Shown here piece by piece: positions 5,766 through 7,528 of a stretch of 8,967 nt of DNA. The notes under the pieces are model-generated. The model did not search any database and was not told the origin of the DNA. It saw only the letters and a list, made by a program, of their open reading frames with translations. The position numbers and the translations under genes are program-made. The stretch is taken from NCBI GenBank assembly GCA_946478765.1, contig CAMLDH010000139.1, forward strand, positions 1-8,967. Direction: 5' to 3'. Position 1 is the first letter of the stretch. The number at the start of each line of letters is the position of its first letter. Source of the stretch: an uncultured Oxalobacteraceae bacterium. Lineage in GTDB: Bacteria > Pseudomonadota > Gammaproteobacteria > Burkholderiales > Burkholderiaceae.

Positions 5766-7126
5766 CGTTTAAGCGCCTCCTGGCGCTGAATACTGCGCCG
5801 AAGCTTTTGCAACTGCGGATGATGTTCTCCCAATGCTGCGCCGAGGCTACGCAAAAGCATTTCAGCTTCATGTGCTTGGTAGTTGCCTTGATCCACCCAT
5901 TCAGTCAATCGCTGCAAGTCGGCTTTCTCGCTTACAGGTGGCTGTGGGTCGACCATCATTACACTTTGCATGACATCTCCACTTGGCTCGCCATAGGTCA
6001 TTGCCAGCGGTGGCGCTGCAATAATCTTCCCGCTTGCGTCCGGGCCAACAATGCGGATATCTTCTCGTTTTACGGTACTCAATACTTGTGGGCTATGAGT
6101 CGTCACGATAAATTGCGTGTTCTGAAATGTTCGTACTAGGTCCGCCAGGATGTGTTGTTGCCATGCTGGATGAAGATGCAAATCAACTTCGTCAATCAGC
6201 GCGATAGCGGGCAAGTCCAGCGGATTCATGATCGGCATGCCCTCCGTCACCATTCGGCTATTTGCTTGCGCCATACGTCGAGCGAGATCCATTACAAGTC
6301 CCATCACCACGCGGTAGCCATCGCTGAGCTGATTAATTCGCAGCGTGCGAGTCACGCCATCGGAAATCGTTCGATCGATTACGAAGCGTAGCGGACGGAT
6401 TTCAGTTCGCGGATTGCTAAAGCCATCAGGCAGCATGCGTACGATGGCATCACGAACCAATTGAAGTTCAGTCAACCGATAGTCAAAATCACGCTTGGAT
6501 TCCTTCTCCCGGCGTTCTTGATCTTCCATCGCGCTAAACCACTCAAACGCCGCACGAAAACGTGAATCTGGGTCCAACGCACCTGCCAACGCTTCGAAGC
6601 GTGAGAATTGTTTTTTAAAGCCGCGACGACGTTGAACTTCCTCGCGAATAGCGCGATTTGTACCGTAATACGCAATAACCGGAAGGAAATATTCACCGCC
6701 TTCCGCGTCCGTTTGTACCAAGTTCAGAGTAAATTCATCGATCTGTTTCAAACCCGTTGTGAGCGAGCCGTCGAGATCTTCAGAAAGTGCGTTCTTGATT
6801 GCAGAAACCTTAATGGAACCATCGCGCCGACGCCCCCCTGACCAGACAACAGGCCCGCCATTTCGGTCTCTTGCTTCCCACGACAGTGCCATGAAGGGCT
6901 CTCGATGCTCCCGTTCATTAATACGGATATCAGTATCCTTGGTTGTTCGCCCTGAAACGCCCGGTAGTTTTGTCAAATACCGTCCAAAGCCGATAGCTAT
7001 CGCATCGAGAATCGCAGTCTTACCTGCACCATTTTCGGCAATGATCACGGTTAGTTTTGAGCCAAATTCAACGTCTAAATCCTCAAAACAGCGGAAATTG
7101 CGCAATCGTATGCGTTCTAGCCTCAT
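5762..7126 (-). CDS. ptuA: ABC/AAA-type ATPase, PtuA-like (Septu sensor/regulator)
   Basis: Cytosolic ATPase of the AAA_21/OLD-like ABC group, 454 aa, expected to sense infection and control the HNH nuclease. Motifs in order: N-terminal RLERIRLRNFRCFEDL (2-17), Walker A ENGAGKT (31-37), YYGTNR (153-158), charged helical insertion DQERREKESKRD (202-213), ABC signature LSDG (267-270), Walker B IALIDEVDLHLHP (308-320) with catalytic Glu313, and the switch histidine TTHSP (342-346). There is no TOPRIM nuclease domain after the ATPase, which separates it from OLD proteins and fits PtuA. The C-terminal 60 residues are helical. The start at 7126 overlaps the preceding stop (ATGA) and the stop overlaps the HNH start (ATGA), indicating translational coupling and fixed stoichiometry. 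All ATPase motifs are intact. A similar ATPase occurs in the Ec78-type retron, but no reverse transcriptase is present here. Confidence 0.88.
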   Translation of the reverse strand: MRLERIRLRNFRCFEDLDVEFGSKLTVIIAENGAGKTAILDAIAIGFGRYLTKLPGVSGRTTKDTDIRINEREHREPFMALSWEARDRNGGPVVWSGGRRRDGSIKVSAIKNALSEDLDGSLTTGLKQIDEFTLNLVQTDAEGGEYFLPVIAYYGTNRAIREEVQRRRGFKKQFSRFEALAGALDPDSRFRAAFEWFSAMEDQERREKESKRDFDYRLTELQLVRDAIVRMLPDGFSNPRTEIRPLRFVIDRTISDGVTRTLRINQLSDGYRVVMGLVMDLARRMAQANSRMVTEGMPIMNPLDLPAIALIDEVDLHLHPAWQQHILADLVRTFQNTQFIVTTHSPQVLSTVKREDIRIVGPDASGKIIAAPPLAMTYGEPSGDVMQSVMMVDPQPPVSEKADLQRLTEWVDQGNYQAHEAEMLLRSLGAALGEHHPQLQKLRRSIQRQEALKR

Positions 7127-7485
7127 AGGAGATCTCCTGGTTTCAGTGCTGTGGACAGCAAGTGTGATAAATCTAAGTTTATGCTCATCACGGCCCAGTC
7201 TGGCTCCTGCGTAAATGGTTTCGTGACATAGAACGGCCCCTCATGCTTCTCGCCGTTCACGAAAACAATGCCAAGAATAAATTTATCTTGCTGGTTCAAT
7301 CCGTAGAGAATCTTATTCCGAGTTACAGTAACAGTATTGCCCCCCTTCGCACGACCCTTGACCTCAATGTGCCGAGAAGCTAGTAATTTCCTATCTACAG
7401 CCTTCGGCAGACTGGTCACATCCCAACCGCACTTCTGAGAAGAGACATCAATCACTTCGTGACCGAGTTCGTATTCAGCGGCCAT
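7123..7485 (-). pseudogene. DUF3883 domain fragment, C-terminal remnant of a large helicase-type defence protein
   Basis: The 120-aa reading from ATG 7485 is a DUF3883-type domain. Asp22 in CGWDV and ExK in HIEVKGR (Glu41, Lys43) match the PD-(D/E)xK nuclease core. TVTVTRNKILYGLNQ..KFILGIVFV (51-76) and EGPFYVTKPF (82-91) complete the usual fold. From family knowledge such sequences normally close proteins of roughly 1,000 residues or more with an SF2 helicase front. Here only the last domain is present and homology stops near the ATG. The open frame runs upstream to 7596, but those residues overlap the ABM gene in another frame and are not expected to be real. No Shine-Dalgarno precedes ATG 7485. 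Its stop overlaps the ATPase start (ATGA), so translation through it could still feed the next gene. It is either a truncated relic or a small functional nuclease; the catalytic residues are retained. Confidence 0.7.
7127..7138 (-). promoter_or_regulatory. Palindromic ribosome-binding site of the ATPase gene
   Basis: The sequence directly before the ATPase ATG is AGGAGATCTCCT, a perfect 12-bp palindrome that contains the Shine-Dalgarno AGGAG. The site overlaps the last codons of the DUF3883 frame. Being fully self-complementary without a loop, it would favour duplexes between two transcripts or local pairing rather than a simple hairpin, and might dampen independent initiation. That effect is inference. 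Confidence 0.5.
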
Positions 7486-7528
7486 TATGTAGATAGCGGA
7501 AAAACCAAACCCGCAAGAGCCAGCGAAG

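What the first reader, a model, noticed from the sequence alone, without database searches (positions are those of the whole stretch)
7123..7528. Stand-alone DUF3883 nuclease-like domain coupled to a Septu-type pair
Seen: a 120-residue segment with D...ExK (CGWDV, HIEVKGR) and a downstream ATGA overlap with the ATPase gene. Known: DUF3883 normally ends a very large helicase-type protein and has a PD-(D/E)xK-like core. Inference: truncation of a larger operon (helicase-ATPase-HNH) left a domain that may still act as a small nuclease or substrate-binding subunit of a three-part system. An operon with an intact 5' helicase gene elsewhere would show that ATPase-HNH pairs can be accessory modules of a bigger defence locus.
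Basis: partly seen in the sequence, partly recalled or inferred. Interest (0 to 1): 0.72.

Follow-up and report, generated by a model that had tools for sequence, protein, structure and literature searches.

The report
Septu pair orphaned from Hma operon
The small nuclease-like gene is most likely a leftover tail of a large anti-phage helicase gene: the two defence genes beside it belong to a type of bigger defence operon (Hma), and here they remain with only scraps of that operon on either side, so the piece itself is probably a relic rather than a new defence part.

Summary
Window 7123-7485 (-) is an open 120-codon frame with a DUF3883/NOV_C PD-(D/E)xK domain and an ATGA overlap to ptuA. It is the C-terminal tenth of HmaA, the helicase-nuclease of the Hma (Type-1 BREX-related) system (161 bits, profile positions 1055-1172 of 1176). 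The island is thus hmaA-3'/ptuA/ptuB/hmaB-5', an Hma operon cut on both sides, lying between two convergent host genes that stand 6 and 13 bases apart in two relatives. Genome G201 carries the intact operon hmaA-ptuA-ptuB-hmaB-hmaC; Rhizobium rhizogenes pC6.5e has a divergent version. Embedding of defence genes between Hma genes is already known. Related PtuAB pairs without DUF3883 exist (Pseudoduganella, G206, E. coli). The hmaB stub, too short to work, shows the same codon-preserving pattern as the DUF3883 piece, so its intact motif does not show present function. Best reading: a Septu pair that outlived its parent operon, with the fragment a relic.

The parts
7123..7488 (-). 3' remnant of hmaA (helicase-nuclease): DUF3883/NOV_C PD-(D/E)xK domain, open frame ATG 7485 to stop 7123, 120 aa
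   Evidence: HmaA profile 1055-1172/1176, 161 bits; 79.7% identity over 118 aa to residues 1061-1178 of G201 HmaA
7134..7138 (-). AGGAG, likely ribosome-binding site of ptuA inside the hmaA remnant
   Evidence: Sequence printed; G201 has AGGAGG in the same region; by eye
5762..7126 (-). ptuA, full-length ABC-type ATPase, 454 aa
   Evidence: PDLC00311 598.6 bits over 1-453; 242.2 bits to PDB 8ee4 PtuA over 1-453
5040..5765 (-). ptuB, full-length HNH endonuclease, 241 aa
   Evidence: PDLC00357 417.9 bits over 1-240; TIGR02646 above cut-off; 279.4 bits to PDB 8ee7 PtuB over 2-240
4909..5043 (-). 5' remnant of hmaB (DUF1156 methylase): ATG overlaps ptuB stop, 39 sense codons, then TGA at 4924-4926; similarity fades at about 4909
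   Evidence: 82% over 45 columns to G201 HmaB residues 1-44, E 1.9e-14
7529..7831 (-). host flank: antibiotic biosynthesis monooxygenase-domain (ABM) gene
   Evidence: PF03992; next to the Hsp70-like gene in empty-site relatives
3633..4883 (+). host flank: Hsp70-like chaperone gene, convergent with the island
   Evidence: PF00012; named relatives

Best explanation
The island at about 4909-7488 is a Septu pair (ptuA-ptuB) that used to lie in the slot between hmaA and hmaB of an Hma (Type-1 BREX-related) operon. The rest of the operon has been lost, or only this piece was captured; what remains of it is the last 120 codons of hmaA upstream and the first 39 codons of hmaB downstream. Shown: the remnants on both sides, the intact parent architecture in a relative, the full-length ptuA and ptuB frames, and the empty chromosomal site in two relatives. 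Inferred: PtuA and PtuB still work as an ordinary Septu system, in which the PtuA ATPase responds to infection and the PtuB HNH nuclease cuts nucleic acid; tRNA-Tyr is the target of one published E. coli Septu. Inferred: the DUF3883 fragment, in the parent the nuclease end of the HmaA helicase, now has no helicase to deliver it and is a relic, at most useful because the likely ptuA ribosome-binding site lies in its 3' end.
For: HmaA C-terminal match. hmaB 5' stub right behind ptuB with the same four-base overlap as in G201. Intact hmaA-ptuA-ptuB-hmaB-hmaC in G201, the Hma proteins scoring 2123.8, 1787.5 and 1582.9 bits to their models, and the same gene content and order in R. rhizogenes pC6.5e. 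Empty site: Hsp70-like and ABM stops 6 and 13 bases apart in G451 and G421. GC is 0.47-0.52 across the island against 0.59-0.66 next to it. ptuA and ptuB align end to end with a solved Septu pair. Relatives of the pair without DUF3883 or hmaB stub: L001, L142, L149. Two further loci with open cargo frames between broken hmaA and hmaB pieces: L043, L138. In a published E. coli Septu, Walker and HNH mutants lose defence and tRNA-Tyr is cut (PMC13096335, passages).
Against: The frame is open with its D and ExK residues, and AlphaFold2 gives the fragment mean pLDDT 92.1, so a live small protein is possible. It departs from 3 of 61 near-invariant columns against a median of 1 and a maximum of 6 among 65 sequences: mild at most. 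Of the 120 listed short DUF3883 proteins, 30 are on contigs over 3 kb, four of them over 50 kb, including P0055 from Candidatus Symbiobacter mobilis; their neighbours could not be read, so real free-standing forms may exist. The GC dip is not unique: window 1501-2250 is also about 0.49-0.51. No whole genome is held for the window, so an intact Hma elsewhere in this cell, or an assembly join, cannot be excluded. Whether the core was deleted in place or a fragment was captured is not resolved.
Confidence: 0.88

Rival explanations
1. The 120-aa protein is a working small nuclease or DNA-binding subunit that joins PtuA-PtuB in a three-part system.
For: Open frame, conserved D/ExK, confident predicted fold whose best structural matches are PD-(D/E)xK enzymes such as Hjc, with only 1 match at E <= 0.001; four-base overlap with ptuA; short DUF3883 proteins on long contigs exist (context unread).
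Against: Only this window shows it among loci read; the pair occurs without it in L001, L142, L149; the same preservation in a 39-codon hmaB stub that cannot work; no Shine-Dalgarno evident by eye before ATG 7485; in L043 the cargo frames are open while the DUF3883 stub has lost the conserved GWD.
Confidence: 0.07
2. The island is a mobile cassette: cargo genes bounded by hmaA 3' and hmaB 5' ends that act as homology arms, moving between Hma operons, here landed outside one.
For: hmaB 5' stubs near cargo in the window, L043, L045 and L139; hmaA 3' stubs before cargo in the window, L043 and L138; similar Hma cores with different cargo, for example L033 and L144 (HmaA 90% identical, PtuA 28%).
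Against: No raised DNA identity next to the slot in five Hma operons; no exact word of 8 or more bases, direct or inverted, shared by the two ends of the island; the stubs are also what plain deletion leaves.
Confidence: 0.12
3. The junctions are an assembly artefact joining an Hma contig to unrelated chromosome.
For: The window's assembly is not held, and GC differs between island and flanks.
Against: The island lies exactly between two convergent genes that are neighbours in two relatives, with order and orientation kept on both sides.
Confidence: 0.04

Closest known systems
Hma / Type-1 BREX-related system (HmaA helicase with C-terminal REase, HmaB DUF1156 methylase, HmaC DUF499 ATPase)
   Same: The fragment is HmaA's C-terminal nuclease domain, and the downstream stub is the start of HmaB
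   Different: Helicase core, almost all of the methylase and all of HmaC are absent in the window
Septu type I (PtuA-PtuB), solved pair 8ee4/8ee7
   Same: Both genes full length and similar end to end, four-base overlap
   Different: Sits between Hma remnants; activity untested
Hma-embedded candidate (HEC) defence genes
   Same: Cargo between Hma genes; a relative's NYN cargo scores 336 bits to PADLOC HEC-09
   Different: Here the cargo is a Septu pair and the surrounding Hma is gone

Membership tests
Hma system | SNF2 helicase HmaA | tested here: not met
   Only profile positions 1055-1172 of 1176 are present
Hma system | HmaB methylase | tested here: not met
   First 39 codons only, then TGA
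Hma system | HmaC DUF499 ATPase | tested here: not met
   No match of G201 HmaC in the window at E 1e-4
Septu type I | Full-length PtuA ABC-type ATPase | tested here: met
   598.6 bits over 1-453; P-loop AENGAGKT and LIDE visible in the translation
Septu type I | Full-length PtuB HNH endonuclease next to PtuA | tested here: met
   417.9 bits over 1-240; TIGR02646 77.2 bits, cut-off 52.15; H71 and N87, counted by hand, are spaced like the published H75/N91
Septu type II / retron I-A | Reverse transcriptase upstream | tested here: not met
   Upstream neighbour is ABM; no reverse transcriptase among the 8 window proteins scanned; Ec78 PtuA and PtuB equivalog models below cut-off
Septu type I | Anti-phage activity | not testable with these tools
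   Needs plaque assays
DUF3883 PD-(D/E)xK nuclease | Fold and D...ExK motif | tested here: met
   PF13020 59.3 bits; motif invariant; Foldseek best match Hjc 2eo0, PvuII further down, E-values weak
DUF3883 PD-(D/E)xK nuclease | Nuclease activity as a free domain | not testable with these tools
   Needs biochemistry

The most novel reading that the evidence does not exclude
Embedded defence cargo of Hma operons travels as cassettes carrying the 3' end of hmaA and the 5' end of hmaB as bookends, which let it recombine into other Hma operons; the window shows such a cassette outside any Hma.
Probability: 0.12. Interest if true: 0.6.

Novelty: new member of a known kind. Interest (0 to 1): 0.33.

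Why it matters
It explains a puzzling 'stand-alone nuclease' as a fossil, and gives an anatomical example of how a compact defence pair can leave, or outlive, a larger defence operon. If the bookend pattern holds in a large survey, it would suggest how embedded defence genes are exchanged. By itself the fragment is ordinary.

Tried and rejected
Recombination arms: DNA identity in 240-column steps along hmaA and hmaB of five operons shows no rise at the slot, and the island's two ends share no exact word of 8 or more bases. dN/dS as proof of function: window-G201 synonymous sites are saturated (pS 0.76-0.84), so ratios are not usable; the hmaB stub has the same codon-position pattern as the fragment. 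A stand-alone DUF3883 family: 267 of 280 candidates pass; of the 120 listed, 89 are on contigs of 3 kb or less, where a gene may simply be cut by the contig end, 30 on longer ones, 1 without a contig; no context could be fetched, so this stays open. Close relatives of ptuA or ptuB in viral contigs: none, although a distant PtuA relative lies on the viral-collection contig L144; DUF3883 in phage records: no match. Repeats within each junction region: nothing convincing. Promoter and terminator scans: no more than in shuffles, within one standard deviation or so. Two later searches for more relatives of the pair found none but the known G201 and G206 (150 genomes each). Dropped before the count of 36 Hma loci: L037 (same plasmid as L124) and L052 as decayed, L050 and L147 because hmaB was not found on the stretch; the G051 and G1030 matches were not fetched; of 42 plasmid records with a match I opened 6, chosen by hand.

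Full report
What is there. The window encodes, on the minus strand between a monooxygenase-domain gene (ABM, 7529-7831) and a convergent Hsp70-like gene (3633-4883, plus strand), a 120-aa DUF3883 frame (7485-7123), ptuA (7126-5762) and ptuB (5765-5040); ptuA and ptuB each start on a four-base overlap with the stop before them. GC is 0.47-0.52 in the island and 0.59-0.66 beside it, though another stretch (1501-2250) is also near 0.5. PADLOC models identify the three as the C-terminal end of HmaA (161 bits, positions 1055-1172 of 1176), PtuA (598.6 bits) and PtuB (417.9 bits); Pfam gives NOV_C/DUF3883 at 59.3 bits with the first 7 profile positions missing. The host is probably in Oxalobacteraceae: named relatives of the Hsp70-like protein, at 76-81% identity, include Paucimonas, Janthinobacterium, Herminiimonas, Noviherbaspirillum and Oxalicibacterium (sources' own labels; family looked up for Herminiimonas and Oxalicibacterium, recalled for the others).

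The parent operon. In genome G201 (unnamed, from the order of Pseudoduganella) an open HmaA gene runs into ptuA (77% identical to the window's), ptuB, hmaB and hmaC, the frames overlapping by four bases each time (the hmaC start codon is uncertain). The Hma proteins score 2123.8, 1787.5 and 1582.9 bits to their models. A named, more divergent case is Rhizobium rhizogenes plasmid pC6.5e (NZ_MK318990): helicase-related protein, AAA ATPase, HNH endonuclease, DUF1156 protein, ATP-binding protein.

The second remnant. Behind ptuB in the window, on an ATGA overlap, lie 39 codons of hmaB, then TGA; similarity ends near 4909 (82% over 45 columns, E 1.9e-14). On the other side HmaA similarity starts at 7488. 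So both neighbours of the pair are cut. In G451 and G421 the Hsp70-like and ABM genes are convergent neighbours, with stop codons 6 and 13 bases apart and the hydrolase and HI0933-like genes in the window's order: the empty site. These are 2 of 27 Hsp70 loci, and G451 is 1 of the 30 ABM loci examined; in the others the two genes are not neighbours within the stretch held.

Full or free. Of 33 matches to the fragment in 399 order-level and 369 class-level genomes, 26 lie in open frames of 1131-1306 aa and 7 in frames of 113-694 aa, some of these at contig ends.

The slot. I scored 36 Hma loci where both the hmaA 3' end and the hmaB start could be seen: 16 from the order search (19 of 20 matches fetched), 12 from the class search (12 of 13 fetched), 5 plasmids (6 opened of 42) and 3 of 4 viral-collection contigs. 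ATPase plus HNH: 6 (L033, L035, L036, L123, L129, L144). L123 was opened because ptuA was known to lie beside it, so 5 of 35 is the fairer figure. HNH partners of L033, L035, L036, L123 and L129 pass TIGR02646; that of L144 is an open frame with a weak tblastn match; in L036 about 1.2 kb or more lie between hmaA and the ATPase. Gap of 120 bases or less: 13. Schlafen/AlbA_2 plus ParA-like: 5 (Pfam for L043, the others by tblastn to it). NYN, PADLOC HEC-09 in L034: 2. Sacsin-like ATPase: 3. Other or unclear: 7. Embedding between Hma genes is known: Hma-embedded candidates (HEC) of Payne et al. 2024 (preprint not held; seen through passages of PMC12111858, PMC12988326, PMC11411939). [quoted passage not shown] A 2026 paper reports HNH genes paired with OLD-type ATPases in BREX and BREX-related loci and an active C-terminal PD-(D/E)XK domain on the helicase in 1921 (79%) of Type-1 taxa (PMC12839542, passages and section 29). 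DUF3883 was called a novel REase domain fused to this SNF2 helicase in 2013 (PMC3710099, passages).

Does the fragment still work? For: open frame; D and ExK invariant in 65 aligned sequences; mean pLDDT 92.1; Foldseek to Hjc, SPARDA and PvuII chains, 1 match at E 0.001 or better; short DUF3883 proteins on long contigs elsewhere, context unread. Against: relatives of the pair without DUF3883 or hmaB stub in Pseudoduganella namucuonensis (L001), G206 (L142) and E. coli 503025 (L149, where ptuA is annotated as frameshifted); no Shine-Dalgarno evident before ATG 7485, while ptuA has AGGAG inside the remnant; 3 departures from 61 near-invariant columns, median 1, maximum 6. The key control is the hmaB stub: 39 codons, too few for a methylase, still differ from G201 mostly at third positions (6, 4, 21), as does the fragment (21, 12, 72). 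I infer that selection acted before truncation and that the truncation is recent compared with the split from G201.

Recurrence. L043 (a second G201 contig, 3508 bases) and L138 (G1043) also keep open cargo frames between a broken hmaA 3' end and a broken hmaB 5' end; in L043 the DUF3883 stub has lost the conserved GWD. L045 and L139 carry an extra hmaB-start stub ahead of the real hmaB. Cargo may survive Hma decay, or may move with bookends; flanking DNA shows no raised identity.

Mechanism. The pair resembles a solved PtuA-PtuB end to end (8ee4 242.2 bits, 8ee7 279.4 bits; its E. coli origin is recalled). In a published E. coli Septu, Walker and HNH mutants lose defence and tRNA-Tyr is cut in the variable loop on infection (PMC13096335, passages). 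That the window's pair acts so is inference. No paper in the library held both DUF3883 and Septu; seven mention DUF3883 (listing; one of them read in passages).

Noticed in passing
L045:3364-3480 and L139:838-924: Extra truncated copies of the hmaB start lie ahead of the intact hmaB start (2 of 36 Hma loci), as if cargo had entered with its own hmaB 5' end.
   Followed up: partly
L043 (G201:C143), whole contig: Schlafen/AlbA_2 plus ParA-like cargo between a broken hmaA 3' end and about 53 codons of hmaB, followed at once by another frame that looks like an AAA ATPase.
   Followed up: partly
L142:5000-7155 (G206): A ptuAB pair whose PtuB is 72% but PtuA only 40% identical to the G201 proteins (as L042), suggesting partner exchange.
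   Followed up: no
first 60 residues of HmaB in Hma loci: Median identity to G201 about 85% although whole HmaB proteins are often near 60%.
   Followed up: no
window 7510-7527: Terminator-like hairpin and T-rich tail between the ABM stop and the hmaA remnant; such sites are no more frequent than in shuffles.
   Followed up: no
L124, Sulfuricystis multivorans pSTJ2: Decayed Hma with an HmaA end beside an HmaB end; the HmaA end is unannotated in the record table.
   Followed up: partly
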